Shown here: positions 1,683-24,250 of the stretch, one piece after another
Numbering within the stretch: position 1 is the stretch's first letter
Layout of the letters: each line of letters begins with the position of its first letter
Notes under the pieces: generated by a model
The model's database searches: none
The model's input: the letters and a program-made list of their open reading frames with translations, nothing else
Told to the model about the DNA's origin: nothing
From: Calliopum simillimum
Lineage: Eukaryota; Arthropoda; Insecta; Diptera; Lauxaniidae
Length of the DNA: 64,000 nt
Direction of reading: 5' to 3'
Assembly (NCBI GenBank): GCA_951812925.1
Contig: OX638368.1
Location: 120,241,309-120,305,308, forward strand
Translations under genes and position numbers: made by a program

Positions 1683-3080
1683 GTGAGTTCTGTATTAAAT
1701 TGCACAATGTTTGAATTAAATCTTTTTACAAGTGGTCGGTATATAAAGTTTTTGGAACTTGTGATTATGCCTGTGCATAATAAATGTTGGTTTTGAAATA
1801 GCACACACATAGCACACATTTTAATTTTCTACAATTATAGCAGTTGAAATTCCATTTTGAAATTTAACTAAATACACTTTAGAGGCTTTTAATATTCTAT
1901 TCATAGTTTGCCTTTATAGAAATTAAATGGAAACTGCGAATTTTCATATATTGCTATTTGAAAGTTGTTGATTCGCACACGCGTGAAATGAAATGTAATT
2001 AAAATATTTATGAAATACATGTAAAATGATTAAAATTGCATTTTAAAATTGCATTCTCTTTTGCATCATAGGTGGTTTAAGTGCAAACATTTTTCTGACT
2101 CTTTGGTAAATTACGTCTTTGACGAAAATTTTTGAAAAATTTTTAAGTGTACAAATTATTCTTTTTATTATTTTTTTTTTTTTTTCTTGAGTGTAGGTTC
2201 GCATGGTTTTCAAAGCACATACTTTCTCTAACATTTTTTTGTAGCAATACTTTGTGTAGCTTTGTAGCATTTTAGCCTTTTTAAACTATTTAAGAAAAAG
2301 TTTATTTACAACAACCTCTTACTATGTAAGCCCGTAGCAAACAAAAATGCTTGATACAAACAAACTTAACAACATAAGTACATATATATTTTGTTATGAT
2401 GCCAATATCAAAGTTTCTCTATAATGGCAAAACAAAAAGTTTTTAAAAACATTAACTAAATAAAAACAGAAAAATATTTGTACAAACTCTTAGAGTTTAC
2501 GAACAAATTACGATAAGGAAAAGTTTAATACAACCATAATTAATGGGCTCATGCTGATAAATTCATAATGAAATAATACACTGGTATGACTTATGTATTT
2601 AGAAACTGTTGATTAAATTGGGTTTCTCGAAAATAATTTTCACTTTAATGACTTTCTTTCATTCAAACAAGATACAACATAAAAACAAAACTTCGCTAAT
2701 TTTCTATTTGCTTCACCTTTAAACTCCTACCTCTTCTGATGTAACAAACCGAAAAACCAGAAAAAACTTATTTAGTTTGCTTTCCAGCATAATTAACAAT
2801 AGGTACATCGGCTGAGTATATCTTACAGCAGGGGAACCCAAAGCCTAAAGTCGAGTGCAAAATCTTTTTCGTTGACATGATTTTGACCTATTACTTTAAT
2901 TGGAATTACTTTCTCCAGTCCCAACCACTTAGATGAAAGTGGAAAGACTAAAACCTTGTGTTGAATTATATTGTCTTGTCTACGATTCAATCAGTTTGAA
3001 TTTATCAATATAAGTTTCTTGTGCATTTTTATCTTCCGGGTTGAAATTCTAACAGAGCATCTCATGCCTAGCATAACAAA
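1683..3080. other. Intron 1, AT-rich stretch without recognisable genes
   Basis: Non-coding intron sequence between the TM1 exon and the first large palindrome. Short open frames here are low-complexity AT-rich noise. No repeat partner elsewhere in the window was recognised. Confidence 0.6.
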
Positions 3081-4468
3081 CACGGTGTGCCTTAACCCGT
3101 TCTAAATCGGACGTCGTAGCACATCAAATTTTTTTCCAGATTCTGTTTGCTTATCGTTCAAATGATGTATAAAAAAATTTTCACTCGTGACTCTTCGACT
3201 AAATTTTGAGATAATCGCTTTTCCAATTGGGGCATTTTCCCATACAAAAAGAAAAAAATTATTTTTTTAACTACATTAAACAAAAATTAAAATAATCACA
3301 ATCGATGTGTTTTGCGATGCTTAACGCGAATCCAACCTTAGATTTGCTCTATCGTGTATAGTTTATGAGATATTGTAACCTAAAGACAAAAAAAAGTCGT
3401 TTTTTGCCATTTTTTGAAGCTATATAGCTATGTAAAATATCATTTATTCGTCAAATGTGGCTTAAACACTTGAAAGCCCCAATCATTTCCTTTAAAACCT
3501 GATTTAAATTATATTTATATCTTCATACTTCTAAGAGATATCGTATACCAAAATATTGTCAAAACGGGTTTTTTGCACTTTTGTGTCTTTTTAGGTTAGA
3601 AAATCTCTGAGGAAAAAAAAGATATCAACATAATTTAAATTAGGTTTTAAAGGCAAAGACTAGGACTTTAAAATTACTTACCAGATTAAACGAAATTAAA
3701 ATTTCTTTCAGATTTTAAACATGTTCAACGAACCGACCATTTCAAAATTCAGCCGTATGCCATACACGTAACAACAACACTCGGGGTGTCAAAGGGCTGA
3801 ATTTAGAAGTAGTCGGTTCGTTGAACATGTTTAAAATGTGAAAGAAATTTTAATTTCGTTTAATCTGGTAAGCAACTTTAAAGTCCTAGTCTTTGCCTTT
3901 AAAACCTAATTTAAATTATGTTGATATCTTTTTCTGCCTTAAAGATATCCTAACCTAAAAAGACACAAAATTGCAAAAACCCCGTTTTGGCAATATTTCG
4001 GTATACGATATCTCTTAGAAGCATGAAGATATAAATATAACTTAAATTAGGTTTTAAAGGAAAAGACTGGGGCTTTCAAGTATTTAAGCCACATTTGACG
4101 AATAAATGATATGTTACATAGTTATATAGCTTCAAAAAATGGCAAAAAACGACTTTTTTTGGTCTTTAGGTTACAATATCTCATAAACTATACACGATAG
4201 AGCAATTCTAAGGTTGGACTCGCGTTAAACATCGCAAAACACATCGATTGTGATTATTTTAATTTTTGTTTAATGTAGTTAAAAAAATTTTTTTTTTCTT
4301 TTTGTATAGGAAAATGCCCCAATTGGAAAAGCGATTATCTCAAAATTTAGTCGAAGAGTCACGAGTGAAAATTTTTTTATACATCATTTGAACGATAAGC
4401 AAACAGAATCTGGAAAAAAATTTGATGTGCTACGACGTCCAATTTCGAACGGGTTAAGGCACACCGTG
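3081..4468. repeat. 1.39-kb near-perfect palindrome with CACGG ends and CAAA duplication
   Basis: Two arms of about 670 bp face each other: CACGGTGTGCCTTAACCCG at 3081 onward is complemented at 4450-4468, and the complementarity continues to a loop near 3757-3796. The element is bordered on both sides by CAAA (3077-3080 and 4469-4472), a plausible 4-bp target duplication. CACNG termini with a 4-bp duplication recall Chapaev-type CMC transposons; that assignment is inference. It has no coding capacity and would form a long hairpin in the receptor pre-mRNA. Confidence 0.75.
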
Positions 4469-10164: not shown

Positions 10165-10365
10165 GAAGTTCGTTGACTGTGAAGAAGAGCAAACGATAGT
10201 GTATCGGTCTAATGACTCACCCTGCATGCAGAGACCCGGGTTCAAATCCTTCACTCGTTGATTTTTCAATTCCAATTTATAAATTTCCATTTATTTGTAC
10301 ACAATTTTCTGAAGAGTCTTCGGAGCGGAAAATGAAACATGTGTCCAATATAGCCGACGTATAAA
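10165..10365 (+). mobile_element. Degenerate tRNA-headed SINE-like element with hammerhead relic
   Basis: A tRNA-like segment (about 10186-10260) contains a B box GGGTTCAAATCC at 10238-10249 and an A-box-like TAGTGTATCGG at 10197-10207. It is followed 60 bp later by a hammerhead-like core at 10309-10345. The order matches the elements at 5337-5865 and 18584-19628, although the sequences are strongly diverged. No clear target duplication was found. Confidence 0.5.
10303..10351 (+). ncRNA. Hammerhead-like motif, probably decayed
   Basis: Core CTGAAGA (10309-10315) fits CUGANGA. Stem II pairs GTCTTC with GGAAAAT with one wobble and one mismatch, then GAAA (10334-10337), then the minimal stem III ACATGTGT and cleavage base C (10345). 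Stem I is poor: the bases next to the core do not pair properly. Probably inactive. Confidence 0.45.
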
Positions 10366-10563: not shown

Positions 10564-10914
10564 CGGCAAAGAGTATAGCAACAAAACAATCTACGAAAAA
10601 TTCCAAGAAAATTTGCCCAAGAAACCATGGGCCTAAAATCAATGTCGAGCCGCCGTAAATTGCGTTGAAGTTTTGTATGAAGTACTTTAAAATTCAATAA
10701 AAAAAACAAAACATTCAAATACTTTGAATAATTTTATATGAAACAAGTAAAAAAAAAATTTGAATTTTTTATTTTTCTTATTGTATTTTAAAGTACTACA
10801 TACAAAACTTCAACGCAATTTACGGCGGCTCGATATTGATTTTAGACCCATGGTTTCATGGGCAAAGTTTCTTGGAATTTTTCGTAGATTATTTTGTTGC
10901 TATACTCTTTGCCA
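10564..10914. repeat. 350-bp hairpin element
   Basis: GGCAAAGAGTATAGCAACAA near 10565 is complemented by the sequence ending at about 10914, with arms of roughly 150 bp that include the GC-richer GTCGAGCCGCCGTAAATTGC and its complement near 10815-10840. The spacer is AT-rich. It is a miniature inverted-repeat element in intron 1, with no coding sequence. Confidence 0.65.
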
Positions 10915-11380: not shown

Positions 11381-13380
11381 GAATCAATGAATCAATGAAT
11401 CAATGAATCAATAAATCAATGAATCAATGAATCAATGAATCAATGAATCAATGAATCAATGAATCAATGAATCAATGAATCAATGAATCAAAAATCGATG
11501 AATCAATGAATCAATGAAGCAATGAATCAATGAATCAATGAATCAATGAATCAATGAATCAATGAATCAATGAATCAATGAATCAATGAATCAATGAATC
11601 AATGAATCAATGAATCAATGAATCAATGAATCAATGAATCAATGAATCAATGAATCAATGAATCAATGAATCAATGAATCAATGAATCAATGAATCAATG
11701 AATCAATGAATCAATGAATCAATGAATCAATGAATCAATGAATCAATGAATCAATGAATAATTGAATAAATGAATAAATGAATAAATGAATAAATGAATA
11801 AATGAATAAATGAATAAATGAATAAATGAATAAATGAATAAATGAATAAATGAATAAATGAATAAATGAATAAACGAATAAATGAATAAATGAATAAATG
11901 AATAAATGAATAAATGAATAAATTAATAAATGAATAAATGAATAAATGAATAAATGAATAAGCGAATAAATGAATAAATGAACAAATGAATAAATGAATA
12001 AATGAATAAATGAATAAATGAATAAAGGAATAAATAAATAAATGAATAAATGAATAAATGAATAAATGAATAAATGAATAAATGAATAAATGAATAAATG
12101 AATAAATGAATAAATGAATAAATGAATAAATGAATAAATGAATAAATTAATAAATGAATAAATGAATAAATGAATAAATGAATAAACGAATAAATGAATA
12201 AATGAACAAATGAATAAATGAATAAATGAATAAATGAATAAACGAATAAATGAATAAATGAACAAATGAATAAATGAATAAATGAATAAATGAATAAATG
12301 AATAAAGGAATAAATAAATAAATGAATAAATGAATAAATGAATAAATGAATAAATGAATAAATGAATAAATGAATAAATGAATAAATGAATAAATGAATA
12401 AATGAATAAATGAATAAATGAATAAATGAATAAATGAATAAATGAATAAATGAATAAATGAATAAATGAATAAATGAATAAATGAATAAATGAATAAATG
12501 AATAAATGAATAAATGAATAAATGAATAAATGAATAAATGAATAAATGAATAAATGAATAAATGAATAAATGAATAAATGAATAAATGAATAAATGAATA
12601 AATGAATAAATGAATAAATGAATAAATGAATAAATGAATGAATGAATAAATGAATAAATGAATAAATGAATAAATGAATAAATGAATAAATGAATAAATG
12701 AATAAATGAATAAATGAATAAATGAATAAATGAATAAATGAATAAATGAATAAATGAATAAACGAATAAATGAATAAATGAATAAATGAATAAATGAATA
12801 AATGAATAAATGAATAAATGAATAAATGAATAAATGAATAAATGAATAAATGAATAAATGAATAAATGAATAAATGAATAAATGAATAAATGAATAAAGG
12901 AATAAATGAATAAATGAATAAATGAATAAATGAATAAATGAATAAATGAATAAATGAATAAATGAATAAATGAATAAATGAATAAATGAATAAATGAATA
13001 AACGAATAAACGAATAAATGAATAAATGAATAAATGAATAAATGAATAAATGAATAAATGAATAAAGGAATAAATAAATAAATGAATAAATGAATAAATG
13101 AATAAATGAATAAATGAATAAATGAATAAATGAATAAATGAATAAATGAATAAATGAATAAATGAATAAACGAATAAATGAATAAATGAATAAATGAATA
13201 AATGAATAAATGAATAAATGAATAAATGAATAAATGAATAAATGAATAAATGAATAAATGAATAAATGAATAAATGAATAAATGAATAAATGAATAAATG
13301 AATAAATGAATAAATGAATAAATGAACAAATGAATAAATTAATAAATGAAAAAATGAATAAATAAATAAATGAATGAATG
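11381..13380. repeat. 2-kb array of an 8-bp repeat in two homogenised blocks
   Basis: About 47 copies of GAATCAAT (11381-11757) switch abruptly to about 200 copies of GAATAAAT (11758-13380). Single-base variants (GAATAAAC, GAACAAAT, GAATAAAG followed by GAATAAATAAAT) recur at intervals that are multiples of eight, for example the AATAAAGGAATAAATAAA variant at 12021, 12301 and 13061. This suggests duplications of longer segments as well as slippage. Because neither unit contains a stop on the minus strand and 8 is not a multiple of 3, all minus frames are open and read as an 8-residue repeat (FIHLFIYS). That is an artefact, not a protein. It lies in intron 2. Confidence 0.97.
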
Positions 13381-13538
13381 ATCATTTTAAGATGAAATCG
13401 TTAAATTCAAATTTGGAGTGATTAACAATATAGCAACGTTCAACAAATTGAAGGGAAACAAATCTGAATTTTATCTCGGTAACATTTTTTGACTAATCAA
13501 AGGTCGCTGATTTCGAATCTAGAATCCTAATCCTATCG

Positions 13539-17545: not shown

Positions 17546-18583
17546 AATAATACTCTGTGCAAAAAATTAGTTCAAGAAAAAAAATATTTTGAGGTCGCAT
17601 ATCTCAAAAAAAATGATTTTTTGGCCGATTTTTTTGCCTTTTTTTTGAACTTTTTGGTAAAATAGTAGATGCAAAATATGGCTTTAAACCTTTTTCTGAG
17701 CAGAAATAATATTTTGGAAAAAAAAAATTTTTCGGATCAAAAAATTTATTTTCAATACATTGCCAAATTGCCTGACAACATGGGTTCGAACAATGCGAAA
17801 AAGATCCTCCTTCTAACTGTGTAATCGTTATAGACGGAGAGCCAGCGCTTGGCTGACCCATCTTATAGTATAAAAACTAAATTTTTTTGTGGGTGTTCGT
17901 TCAATAGTTGATATGAACTTTTCTTCACGTGAAATCCTAAAAAGTGGTGCCTTCGTGAGATATCGAGTGCAAAAGGTCTATAATATATATATATATATAT
18001 CTATAATATATATATCTATAACACAAAAAAATTTAGTTCCACAATTTTGTAGCTCAGCAAATTTTATATCGAAAAAATGGTGCAAATTGTTTTCATACGC
18101 CTTATAGTTTAGGAGATATGGTCCAGTGAAATTGGACTTTCCGATCAAACACATAAAATCCATAATTTTTTTTCTTTATGTCGGTTTATTTTGTAGTTTT
18201 AAAGTATGCGCAATAATTCGAGACCGATTTCACTGTCATACAAAAAGTTATTCTGGCGCAAAGGTCGATTTCTACAAAAAAATGGTTTTCCACTATTTTG
18301 TAGCTCAGAAAATTTCATATCGAAAAATGGTGCAAATTATTTTCTTACGACCCACAGTTTAGGAGATATCCTATTTTAAGGTATTTTCAGCATACAAGTG
18401 TTCACATTAATATGAATGAATTTTTTAAGTGTGTTACTTAATGACATTTTATATTGAAAATTGATTTTATTTAATTGAACTTTTAGTCATATATTTGCAA
18501 AGATCGATTTACATATAAATCTATCAATGCATTTTTCTAACACATAATTATGACAAATCAAGGAACGGATTAAAAACACGGCT

Positions 18584-18630
18584 ATAGTGACATATGTTTC
18601 GTCTTTCGCCACAAAGACTCATCAGACTAT
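18584..18630 (-). ncRNA. Hammerhead ribozyme (left, minus strand)
   Basis: Same sequence as the copy at 19582-19628 on the opposite strand. Stem I pairs ATAGT with ACTAT, the core is CTGATGA, stem II pairs GTCTTT with AAAGAC around GTGGCG, then GAAA, a minimal stem III ACATATGT and cleavage base C. The predicted cut is between 18589 and 18588. Every conserved core base is present. Confidence 0.85.
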
Positions 18631-18712
18631 TTTTGTTGTAATTATAATTATATTTATTTTACTAAATTAATTATAATTGAAAAATTGCAAGTTTGAAAAC
18701 TTTTTGTGTTTT

Positions 18713-18786
18713 TGGTCTGGGCGGGAGACGAACCAAGGATCTCCAGGTTGGTAGCAGAAGTCGTTACCACTGCACCAGCCTTGCCC
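18713..18786 (-). other. tRNA-like SINE head (left copy)
   Basis: Reverse complement of the head at 19426-19498. The B box GGTTCGTCTCC is the complement of 18724-18734, and the A box TGGTGCAGTGGT the complement of 18766-18777. It is not a functional tRNA gene: no clean cloverleaf is evident and the copy is embedded in the repeat. Confidence 0.7.
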
Positions 18787-18844
18787 GGCTGCGAAGCCGA
18801 CTTTTTGCCAGTTTTATTTGTGTGTTAATACGTATTGATATCGA

Positions 18845-19110
18845 TACGTCCAACGTAAAAGTTGGTAACTCGAAAATCGTAGTTATGAGTAATGAGCATT
18901 TTTGTATTTTAACTTTTTTTTTTTTTTGTATGAAAACCTATATAAAATAAATTTAGGTTGTGACTTCAAAAATAGCTCCCAGGCCTTCAAATGTCAAGCT
19001 AGAGGTACCAAAATTTGACACAAGATGGAACCAAATGTGCAGATTTCGAAAAATACTGTCCCGTAAAAAGTTGGTAACTCAAGTTACCAACTTTTACGTT
19101 GGAGGTATCG
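18845..19110. repeat. Nested 266-bp inverted-repeat element between the SINE-like units
   Basis: TCCAACGTAAAAGTTGGTAA near 18849 is complemented by TTACCAACTTTTACGTTGGA near 19084-19103. The flanking CGATA is also inverted. It is a MITE-like insertion at the centre of the larger palindrome. Confidence 0.6.
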
Positions 19111-19425
19111 ATATATCATAATTGTTGTTTTTGTGTTATTTATTGATATTTGGTATAGTTGTTCCTTTGGAACAAATTCAATACCGATTGCAGGTGTTTC
19201 CACCTTATCAGGGCGTGTTCTCCCAAATAACTTTAAGAATTTTTTAAGTGTGTTACTTAATGACATTTTATATTGAAAATTGATTTTATTTAATTGAACT
19301 TTTAGTCATATATTCCAAAGGAACAACTATACCAAATATCAATAAATAACACAAAAACAACAATTATGATATATCAATACGTATTAACACACACATAAAA
19401 CTGGCAAAAAGTCGGCTTCGCAGCC

Positions 19426-19498
19426 GGGCAAGGCTGGTGCAGTGGTAACGACTTCTGCTACCAACCTGGGGATCCTTGGTTCGTCTCCCGCCCAGACC
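19426..19498 (+). other. tRNA-like SINE head (right copy)
   Basis: Contains an internal pol III promoter: A box TGGTGCAGTGGT (19435-19446) and B box GGTTCGTCTCC (19478-19488), 31 bp apart, as in tRNA-derived SINEs. The body downstream is AT-rich, and the hammerhead ribozyme begins about 84 bp after the head. Confidence 0.75.
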
Positions 19499-19581
19499 AA
19501 AAACACAAAAAGTTTTCAAACTTGCAATTTTTCAGTTATAATTAATTTAGTAAAATAAATATAATTATAATTACAACAAAA

Positions 19582-19628
19582 ATAGTCTGATGAGTCTTTG
19601 TGGCGAAAGACGAAACATATGTCACTAT
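19582..19628 (+). ncRNA. Hammerhead ribozyme (right, plus strand)
   Basis: Stem I is ATAGT (19582-19586) with ACTAT (19624-19628). The core is CTGATGA (19587-19593). Stem II is GTCTTT (19594-19599) with AAAGAC (19606-19611), six pairs around GTGGCG. GAAA is at 19612-19615, where the last A pairs with T19622 in the three-pair stem III ACATATGT. The cleavage base is C19623 (GTC), so the cut is predicted between 19623 and 19624. The minimal stem III is the form seen in retroelement-associated hammerheads such as those of schistosome SINEs and Penelope-like elements. Confidence 0.87.
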
Positions 19629-20413
19629 AGCCGTGTTTTTAATCCGTTCCTTGATTTGTCATAATTATGTCTTAGAAAAATGCATTGATAGATTTATATG
19701 TAAATCGATCTTTGCAAATATATGACTAAAAGTTCAATTAAATAAAATCAATTAATATGAATGTTGATTTTCAAATTAATATAACTATGCCTACGTCATA
19801 GTATCAAGGCTGAATTTTTTTGTGGGTATTTTACCAATAGTGGGTACTAACCTTCGTTTTAGTCAAACTGTGAAAGGTGGTGCCTTCGTGAGATATCGGG
19901 TGCAAAAGGTCGAAATATTTTACAATACTTGAAAAAAATAATTCAAAACAAGCGGAGAAAAACGTAAAAATCGGTTGATACTGCAATTAATAGCTCAAAT
20001 ATTTTGCTTACAAAACAGACAGCACCTTTTTCTAAAATATATTAGTCTTTAAAAAAAAAAAACAGGCAGAAACCCGTTTTTTGGCTACTTCTGAGATTAT
20101 ATACAGAATGCAATAGTTTGCTCTTTTCTACCAACTAAATTATTTATAACTCTTTGTCATCTTCAAAATGAGCAAAAGGTGTAGTCCTCTGTAATTTTTT
20201 GCTTACAAACTTATTACCATTTTAAGATGACATCATGAAATATTTATTAAAGAGCAAAAATATTCCCAAATCGATTAACATTTTCTTTTAGTGTCAAATA
20301 CATGCTCAAGCATTTCTCAACTGTCTCATTAAAACATACGTATTTAGCCCGGAAAAAAAAAAACGAAAACACATTTTTCATCATCTTTACACCATGTCCT
20401 TTATTCATTACAG

Positions 20414-23827: not shown

Positions 23828-24250
23828 CTATAAAGCGGGTGAGGCAAAATTTCCCATCCGTTGTTTTCCGTTGTTTTCCAGGTAATTTTTGACTGGGGCA
23901 GCAATATGTGGCCGAGCGTTATCGTGGTGAAAAATGATTGACTCATGTCTGGTCGCATACGTTGGCCGCTCTGCCTGGATTTTCTGCTTCAATTGGATCA
24001 ATTGTTGACGATAGAATTGAGCATTAATGATTTGGCCACCTGGCAACAGCTCATAATGGATCACACCTAGCTGGTCCTGACCAGGACGTTCTTTGTCTTC
24101 GACATCAAAATAACCACTTTTAAACCACTCACGACAGCTTGATTCAGTTGGAGCATAGTCCCCATAAACTTCTACAAGAATGCGATTACTTTCGGCAGCT
24201 GTTTTCTTTGACCCACTAGAACCCCCCGCAAATGCTGTCTTTTTCTCCAA
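23828..24250 (-). pseudogene. Mariner transposase fragment with internal deletion
   Basis: An open frame of about 140 codons. The N-terminal part (YGDYAPTESSCREWFKSGYF, then DVEDKERPGQ) is the mariner linker. It runs directly into DQLGVIHYELLPGGQ and, near residues 105-115, FHHDNARPH, which holds the second catalytic Asp of the DD34D triad. The first catalytic Asp segment and its surroundings are deleted between PGQ and DQLG. The third Asp region is missing at the 3' end. It belongs to a different mariner lineage from the plus-strand fragment beside it. Confidence 0.8.

What the first reader, a model, noticed from the sequence alone, without database searches (positions are those of the whole stretch)
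18584..19628. Inverted pair of tRNA-headed SINE-like units, each with a canonical hammerhead ribozyme
Seen: both copies satisfy every hammerhead core position (CTGATGA, six-pair stem II, GAAA, minimal three-pair stem III, GTC cleavage site, five-pair stem I), and each is preceded on its own strand by a tRNA-like A box/B box head about 80 bp upstream. Known: minimal-stem-III hammerheads occur in schistosome SINEs, Penelope-like elements and metazoan retrozymes. Inference: this fly lineage has a ribozyme-bearing SINE or retrozyme-like family that could self-process pol III transcripts. I do not know of a described dipteran example.
Basis: partly seen in the sequence, partly recalled or inferred. 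Interest (0 to 1): 0.87.

Follow-up and report, generated by a model that had tools for sequence, protein, structure and literature searches.

The report
Ribozyme retroelements at fly chromosome ends
A small non-coding mobile element that carries a self-cutting RNA motif and tRNA-like promoter boxes is scattered through this insect genome with insertion marks like those of Penelope retrotransposons, and a close relative of it forms long, one-way repeat arrays at about half of the ends of the large contigs, which offers a testable idea of how chromosome ends might be kept without telomerase.

Summary
In detail: both strands carry a complete hammerhead core behind A/B-box-like heads. The interpretation changes. 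The "inverted pair" is one insertion (18419-19750) with a 13-bp target duplication: two cDNAs of a 545-bp unit joined head to head, so both outer ends are RNA 3' ends. The genome holds 2063 exact cores (232 of a terminal type; control 0), many in head-to-tail arrays. In 17 of 17 insertions with both ends classed, one end stops at site A, the other at site B about 40 nt on: the one-sided "tail" of Penelope-like elements (PLEs). An intact PLE is present. I call it a PLE-mobilised hammerhead retrozyme with pol III-type boxes, not a LINE-driven SINE.

A diverged 385-410-bp subfamily forms arrays at 6 of 12 ends of contigs C1-C6, plus one decayed unit at a seventh; all seven point inward. The 100 listed of 232 exact copies all lie near ends; variants are private to an end; 43 units at C3 left are identical; five of six inner boundaries stop at site A. 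Position is shown; telomere function, cleavage and circular RNA are untested. T-runs between boxes and ribozyme speak against simple pol III self-processing.

The parts
18406..18418 (.). left target-site duplication ATTAATATGAATG
   Evidence: (D15)
18419..19750 (.). the whole insertion: two cDNAs of the 545-bp unit joined head to head, plus a nested element
18418..19314 (-). minus-strand cDNA: unit positions q94-545 then q1-171 (3' end at site B); interrupted by the nested element
   Evidence: L001 548-1444; window = L001 position + 17870
18841..19111 (.). nested TA-flanked element with ~30-bp terminal inverted repeats (MITE-like, Tc1/mariner-type by its TA duplication; type recalled)
   Evidence: (I4), 35: unit sequence resumes on both sides
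18584..18630 (-). hammerhead, left copy; predicted cleavage between 18589 and 18588
18724..18734 (-). B box-like GGTTCGTCTCC (1 mismatch), left copy
18767..18777 (-). A box-like TGGTGCAGTGG (0 mismatches), left copy
19314..19753 (+). plus-strand cDNA: unit positions q237-545 then q1-130 (3' end at site A)
19435..19445 (+). A box-like TGGTGCAGTGG (0 mismatches), right copy
19478..19488 (+). B box-like GGTTCGTCTCC (1 mismatch), right copy
19582..19628 (+). hammerhead, right copy (stem I, CTGATGA, stem II, GAAA, palindromic stem III, GTC, stem I); predicted cleavage between 19623 and 19624
19751..19763 (.). right target-site duplication ATTAATATGAATG
10197..10356 (+). copy of a second, older family: A box TAGTGTATCGG (10197), B box GGTTCAAATCC (10239), hammerhead-derived and probably decayed core (10309)

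Best explanation
The window holds one insertion of a non-autonomous hammerhead retrozyme: a ~545-nt non-coding unit with pol III-type A/B boxes and a type I hammerhead. Its RNA, probably a multimer or circle, is copied by the reverse transcriptase of a resident Penelope-like element. That enzyme primes on both strands of a staggered cut in AT-rich DNA: one strand starts at RNA site A, the other at site B about 40 nt further on, and the two cDNAs meet head to head, leaving an 8-19-bp duplication. Shown: unit, arrays, A/B rule, duplications, and an intact PLE ORF in the genome. Inferred: use of such a PLE, ribozyme cleavage, circularisation. A diverged subfamily (385-410-bp units) sits at ends of the large contigs in inward-pointing arrays and probably forms a telomeric or subtelomeric repeat of this presumably dipteran, hence telomerase-less, genome. 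Position and polarity are shown; the mode of growth (reverse transcription from a ribozyme RNA, or recombination) is inferred and open.
For: Genome copies: 2063 exact cores, control 0. Tandem 545-bp units with whole-insertion duplications: exact 8 nt or more in 18 of 23 loci tested against 33 of 506 cross-pairings; 11 nt or more in 11 of 23 against 0 of 506. Of 26 loci read, 19 are two-ended with both ends seen; both ends could be classed in 17, and all 17 are one A plus one B. PLE papers describe the same pattern: an inverted head-to-head pLTR with a 31-bp tail on one end and TSDs of 8-10 bp (passages of PMC3846280); tail = stretch between two RT start sites, both strands cut and extended (section of PMC11167929). 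PLE present: 51 GIY-YIG matches from 150 scored of 209 candidates, one 830-aa ORF with RVT_1 and GIY-YIG, an 89-bp direct repeat and a head-to-head inverted piece. A/B boxes at 42-44 nt spacing in three families, 0 of 2000 shuffles each. Ends: arrays at 6 of 12 contig ends plus one decayed unit at C6L, 7 of 7 polarity inward; of 232 exact terminal-type cores the 100 listed lie within 25 kb of ends of C1, C3, C4; end-private markers 25 of 25 at C5 left and 32 of 32 at C5 right; five of six boundaries seen stop at site A; 43 units with 0 differences in 17,114 bases.
Against: No cleavage, RNA or circle data. The PLE copy read shares no clear sequence with the retrozyme (best E 0.016), its own ends were not mapped, and other PLE families were not read, so the partner is not identified. 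[quoted passage not shown] The A and B classes were set after seeing the ends. T5+ runs lie between B box and ribozyme in the 545-bp and terminal units. The ribozyme is not unusually stable alone (z 0.3 and -0.3). Terminal units lack the A-B tail region except at the inner boundary, and the five junctions share subtelomeric sequence, so one ancestral attachment plus recombination would also fit; C6L's unit stops before site A; C5-right marker units are spaced 391, 782 or more, so unit types alternate. 5 of 12 ends lack the repeat. L030 and L049 each have one end that is neither A nor B. In the second family only 4 of 8 further copies keep CTGAAGA. The TERT search is uninformative (0 matches, control silent).
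Confidence: 0.72

Rival explanations
1. A tRNA-derived SINE with a ribozyme in its body, mobilised by a LINE; the inversion comes from twin priming and the tandem copies from recombination.
For: A/B boxes in three families; the second family has an A-rich 3' region like a SINE tail; schistosome Sm-alpha is a published non-autonomous retrotransposon with type I hammerheads (figure legend in PMC6155905).
Against: Arrays of up to about 10 units inside one duplication (L032); both outer ends are 3' ends in 19 of 26 loci; two alternative 3' sites used one per side in 17 of 17 classed loci; no tRNA fold found.
Confidence: 0.12
2. A fold-back or MITE-like DNA transposon with long inverted repeats that happens to contain a ribozyme-like motif.
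For: 383-nt arms at 99%.
Against: Duplications vary from 8 to 19 bp; the head-to-head joining point differs between loci, and single-orientation and multimeric copies occur; the hammerhead core recurs in families with different flanks.
Confidence: 0.03
3. The terminal arrays are ordinary satellites at which the assembly stopped (subtelomeric or pericentromeric), spread by unequal exchange or break-induced replication; the ribozyme is a passenger from the element's past.
For: Perfect homogeneity within one end read whole and private variants at two ends; alternating unit types at C5 right; shared subtelomere sequence at five junctions; other satellites at C1R, C2R and C4L.
Against: Both ends of C3 and C5, inward polarity in 7 of 7; no internal copies among the 100 of 232 listed, which by list order cover C1-C3 and C4 up to 119.48 Mb; hammerhead core kept at 6 of 7 ends while spacers differ.
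Confidence: 0.35

Closest known systems
Metazoan non-LTR retrozymes (PMC7229834, passages; PMC7761336, passages)
   Same: Type I hammerhead in short non-coding AT-rich tandem repeats, dimers to large multimers; TSDs longer than 4 bp; PLEs proposed there as a strong candidate mobiliser.
   Different: PMC7761336 says retrozymes do not seem to harbour promoters; here A/B boxes recur. The dispersed unit is 545 bp (150-450 bp reported). The two-ended A/B rule and a chromosome-end subfamily are not described in the passages I saw.
Penelope-like elements (PMC3846280, passages; PMC11167929, main-text section)
   Same: Partial tandems, head-to-head inverted ends, tail on one end only, variable TSDs, AT-rich targets, minimal hammerheads.
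   Different: No ORF in the unit; units repeat up to about 10 times; A/B boxes; best sequence match to the one local PLE copy read is E 0.016.
Schistosome Sm-alpha with hammerhead (figure legend in PMC6155905; otherwise recalled)
   Same: Non-autonomous retrotransposon with type I hammerhead; pol III-type head (recalled).
   Different: Here two-ended insertions and multimers, and a terminal subfamily.
Terminons of bdelloid rotifers (PMC6431247, passages)
   Same: Hammerhead-bearing, PLE-related retroelements at chromosome ends.
   Different: Terminons are giant, protein-coding and attach to G-rich telomeric repeats; here short non-coding tandem units, and TRF listed no TTAGG-type repeat at the 12 ends read.
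Long complex terminal tandem repeats of Diptera and HeT-A/TART (PMC12051294, passages)
   Same: Long-unit terminal arrays in telomerase-less flies; inward polarity as for telomeric retrotransposons.
   Different: No ribozyme is mentioned for those repeats in the passages seen; here the unit is related to a dispersed retroelement.

Membership tests
Metazoan non-LTR retrozyme | Hammerhead in head-to-tail tandem repeats | tested here: met
   545-bp period; L032 has 10 full units in one orientation
Metazoan non-LTR retrozyme | Low G+C, non-coding | tested here: met
   G+C 0.32-0.35; no ORF of 120 aa or more in the insertion
Metazoan non-LTR retrozyme | No LTR, PBS or PPT | not tested
   not searched for separately
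Metazoan non-LTR retrozyme | Canonical type I ribozyme with loop I-loop II contacts | tested here: inconclusive
   core and stems present, Rfam below gathering, contacts not modelled
Metazoan non-LTR retrozyme | Accumulates as circular RNA | not testable with these tools
   no RNA data
Penelope-like element (autonomous) | ORF with RT and GIY-YIG | tested here: not met
   unit has no ORF of 120 aa or more; so at most a non-autonomous passenger
PLE-mobilised insertion | Head-to-head ends with tail on one side only | tested here: met
   17 of 17 classed two-ended loci are A+B; 2 further two-ended loci have one unclassed end; 5 of 26 loci have one orientation only, 2 could not be judged
PLE-mobilised insertion | Variable target-site duplication in AT-rich DNA | tested here: met
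PLE-mobilised insertion | Shared recognition sequence with a resident PLE | tested here: inconclusive
   one PLE copy read, its ends not mapped; best match E 0.016
SINE (LINE-mobilised, tRNA-derived) | A and B boxes at pol III spacing | tested here: met
SINE (LINE-mobilised, tRNA-derived) | Recognisable tRNA fold | tested here: not met
   ARAGORN 0
SINE (LINE-mobilised, tRNA-derived) | Single 3' end, monomeric, LINE tail or poly(A) | tested here: not met
   for the 545-bp family; the second family does have an A-rich 3' region
Dipteran terminal tandem repeat (LCTTR) | Long-unit array at chromosome ends only | tested here: met
   arrays at 6 of 12 ends of C1-C6 and one decayed unit at a seventh; 132 of 232 exact cores were not listed individually and the 328 other contigs were not read
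Dipteran terminal tandem repeat (LCTTR) | Physical telomere | not testable with these tools
   needs FISH, Bal31 or raw reads

The most novel reading that the evidence does not exclude
Chromosome ends in this insect are lengthened by reverse transcription of a self-cleaving, probably circular, hammerhead RNA by a Penelope-type enzyme (a cousin of telomerase): rolling round one ~400-nt RNA circle lays down uniform, end-private, inward-pointing arrays. The ribozyme retrozyme then plays the part of a giant telomerase RNA.
Probability: 0.3. Interest if true: 0.96.

Novelty: new variant of a known kind. Interest (0 to 1): 0.86.

Why it matters
How flies without telomerase keep chromosome ends built of long complex repeats is an old question. 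Here the terminal repeat is a close relative of a mobile ribozyme element, so a concrete RNA, cleavage site and enzyme can be tested. Separately, the one-A-one-B end rule gives direct genomic support for the published suggestion that animal retrozymes ride on Penelope-like elements, and suggests that the two target strands use different RNA start sites.

Tried and rejected
Rfam at gathering score found nothing; below it only weak hammerhead hits in the window. Single-molecule folding of the ribozyme is no better than shuffles. Two independent SINEs: rejected by the single outer duplication and the family-wide two-ended structure. Fold-back transposon: rejected by variable duplications and junctions. 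Full tRNA: not found. Conservation of the ribozyme among 545-bp copies (6 differences in 3336 bases against 242 in 41290 overall) is in the right direction but rests on the best-scoring copies only. A type III alternative fold in terminal units (upstream CATATGTA pairing with GAAACATATG; Rfam 37.8 bits, E 2.7e-6) is broken at C5 right (CATATATA) and absent from the 545-bp unit, so I do not rely on it. A covariance model was not built: the nine aligned cores vary too little. A guess at the C5-left boundary (C5:16000-16800) missed; the boundary was read. Second family: its consensus has a C-A mismatch in stem II and a bulge in stem I (read by eye), so it may no longer cut. Not done: RF00008 and RF00163 searches of the whole genome, naming the host, a TERT control.

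Full report
Observation. The arms at 18459-18841 and 19371-19753 are 383 nt, 99% complementary. Each carries stem I (ATAGT/ACTAT), CTGATGA, a six-pair stem II, GAAA, a short stem III and GTC. The pattern of core and stem II is absent from 100 shuffles of the window. Stem III is the palindrome ACAUAUGU: as a hairpin only about two pairs are possible, while two molecules could pair over eight bases, the situation described for weak-stem-III hammerheads that work as dimers (passages of PMC7761336; PMC5785218 itself was not held).

One insertion. ATTAATATGAATG stands at 18406-18418 and 19751-19763. Comparison with genome copies shows that the stretch between holds two cDNAs of one 545-bp unit, numbered from the cleavage site: on the minus strand q94-545 and q1-171, on the plus strand q237-545 and q1-130, joined head to head at 19314. 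A 271-bp TA-flanked inverted-repeat element sits inside the first (18841-19111).

Family. A 383-nt query found 48 matches from 40 scored of 1557 candidates; 41 of the 48 span the whole query. The stricter core pattern has 2063 exact matches with 0 for the reversed control; 232 of them are of the terminal type. I read 26 insertion loci (20, the window's own copy and five loci), all chosen because they hold a high-scoring 383-nt match. Many hold head-to-tail arrays at 545 bp, one with ten full units. Nineteen of 26 are two-ended with both outer ends seen, each an RNA 3' end; five have one orientation only (L018, L019, L033, L034, L043); two could not be judged (L036 cut off on the left, L042 runs on). 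In 17 of the 19 both ends fall at site A (q115-144) or site B (q168-182), and all 17 have one of each (two-sided binomial p 1.5e-5 for even odds). The bounds of the classes (110-150, 160-190) were set after seeing the ends; L030 and L049 each have one end elsewhere; the A end of L031 rests on an 88% match; L039 is counted as one insertion although about 1 kb of other sequence interrupts it. Exact duplications of 8 nt or more flank 18 of 23 tested loci, against 33 of 506 mismatched pairings (L036, L039 and L042 were left out of this test).

What this resembles. PLE insertions are described as partial tandems with a head-to-head inverted terminal repeat, an optional 31-bp tail at one of the inverted ends and an 8-10-bp TSD (PMC3846280, passages). 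In the first PLE shown active in vitro the tail is the stretch between two internal RT start sites, and both target strands are cut and extended in AT-rich DNA (PMC11167929, main-text section). That study saw no difference in start site between strands and no need for ribozyme cleavage in insertion, so the strict A/B rule here is either family-specific or arises during joining. The genome holds GIY-YIG ORFs (51 matches from 150 scored of 209 candidates). One 830-aa ORF carries RVT_1 and GIY-YIG, with an 89-bp direct repeat and a 95-bp head-to-head piece and a hammerhead-like CTGATGA...GAAA stretch about 145 nt after the ORF (structure read by eye). It is not clearly similar in sequence to the retrozyme units (best E 0.016); its own insertion ends were not mapped and other PLE families were not read. 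Its best hits are unnamed (52-53% identity); the best named relatives are in Drosophila virilis (49%), Eurosta (49%), Musca (49%), Lucilia (56% over 80%) and Haematobia (51% over 85%) (120 of 897 shown). So the enzyme type is present, but the partner is inferred. The idea that PLEs move animal retrozymes is already in print as a suggestion (PMC7229834, discussion passage).

Promoter boxes. A and B boxes occur at 42-44 nt spacing in the 545-bp unit (0 and 1 mismatches), one terminal unit (C1L; 0 and 0) and the second family at window 10197-10249 (0 and 0); 0 of 2000 shuffles match in each case (the second family was tested with a looser A box). A review states that retrozymes do not seem to harbour promoters (PMC7761336 passage). 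Runs of five or more T lie between B box and ribozyme in the 545-bp unit, the C1L unit and the window copy of the second family; the other five intact terminal units have T5 there too, and 4 of 8 further copies of the second family do. An ordinary pol III transcript should stop at such runs unless read-through occurs; in AT-rich sequence they may also be chance. The claim that pol III RNA self-processes is therefore open.

Second family. The copy at 10185-10365 has 40 matches (39 besides itself, 88-92% identity) from 40 scored of 1909 candidates, all over at least 168 of 181 bases. Eight of the 39 were read: the ribozyme stretch is recognisable in all eight, but CTGAAGA is intact in only four, the others having one change. 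Its consensus has a stem II mismatch and a bulge in stem I, so this family may no longer cut.

Chromosome ends. The core pattern's first hits lay at the start of contig C1. I read the terminal 1.5-4 kb of all 12 ends of the six large contigs C1-C6, which by their lengths make up about 675 of 690 Mb; the other 328 contigs were not read. Six ends stop inside arrays related to the 545-bp unit: C1L 406 bp, C3L 398, C5L 402, C3R 385, C4R 410, C5R 391; a seventh, C6L, has one decayed unit (its GTC changed). All seven point inward. C1R, C2R and C4L have other satellites; C2L and C6R lack the repeat. An exact core of the terminal type has 98+134 matches genome-wide, control 0. The list shows the first 100: C1 0.4-2.7 kb (5), C3 0.2-17.4 kb (44), the last 7.3 kb of C3 (19) and C4 from 119.467 Mb (32). 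If the list runs in contig order, as it appears to, there are none elsewhere on C1, C2, C3 or earlier on C4. The other 132 are not listed. A C5-left marker occurs 25 times, all at C5 45-9727; a C5-right marker 32 times, all in the last 21.7 kb of C5, at spacings of 391, 782 or more. The C3-left array was read through: 43 units of exactly 398 bp, no difference in 17,114 bases, which an assembly might also over-smooth. Of six inner boundaries seen, five (C1L, C3L, C5L, C3R, C4R) stop at site A and pass into the same subtelomeric sequence; at C6L the decayed unit stops earlier, near q97; C5R's boundary was not read. The six intact ends share one hammerhead core while spacers differ; C4R gains four bases that would give stem III a normal loop.

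How it may work. Shown: position, polarity, homogeneity of one array, private variants at two ends, site A at five inner boundaries. Inferred: extension of a chromosome end by RT on a hammerhead RNA. For it: polarity as for telomeric retrotransposons that point to the centromere (PMC12051294 passage) and uniform arrays as expected from one circular template. Against it: the terminal units lack the A-B start region except at the inner boundary; the shared subtelomere suggests one old attachment copied by recombination; C5-right units alternate. I give reverse transcription 0.3 and recombinational upkeep somewhat more. Telomerase: a PF12009 search gave nothing, but its control also gave nothing, so absence rests on what is published for Diptera and on the host being a fly.

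Novelty. Ten paper searches gave no listed title or abstract beginning about hammerhead repeats at fly chromosome ends; most listed papers were not opened and the lists were capped. The nearest are Terminons of rotifers (PMC6431247 passages). The library lacks most subscription journals, so this is not proof. The parts are known kinds; the combination, the A/B rule and the terminal subfamily look new.

Noticed in passing
L051 (C1:1-4000) about 1226-1893 and 2708-3375: A ~670-bp element with CCCAAC-type inverted ends, apparently flanked by TA, is inserted in the terminal array and repeated with it as a 1482-bp higher-order unit; a similar sequence lies near the C4 right boundary.
   Followed up: partly
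L052, L055, L058 (ends C1R, C4L, C2R): Other terminal satellites: 326-bp, 376-bp and 227-bp tandem units; C2R and C4L look related by eye (GACAGAATGCAACGAAACAG-like motif).
   Followed up: no
terminal units, e.g. L051:338-407: Upstream CATATGTA could pair with GAAACATATG to make a type III hammerhead with a GUA site, an alternative fold of the same core; broken at C5 right.
   Followed up: partly
L075-L082, downstream of the ribozyme: Second family ends in an A-rich stretch followed in most copies by what looks like an antisense B box (CACTGAGATTTGAACC), so its full unit may be larger and inverted too.
   Followed up: no
window 10613-10864: Long inverted repeat (scores as plant MIR841 on both strands), probably a fold-back element.
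   Followed up: no
window 11735-13385, minus strand: Minisatellite with long open frames of the type (FIYSFIHL)n.
   Followed up: no
window 23828-24250, minus strand: 140-aa ORF that reads like a mariner transposase remnant (label recalled, not searched).
   Followed up: no
L071 (C183), L072 (C104): GIY-YIG ORFs of 612 and 622 aa on small contigs, possibly bacterial UvrC from a symbiont or contaminant (guess).
   Followed up: no
junctions L063, L064, L065, L051, L083: Shared subtelomeric block next to the terminal arrays at five ends; at C3L, C3R and C4R about 900 bp with inverted ends (TTTAGCATAGACTAGATGAGAATCACAAAAGC, by eye).
   Followed up: partly
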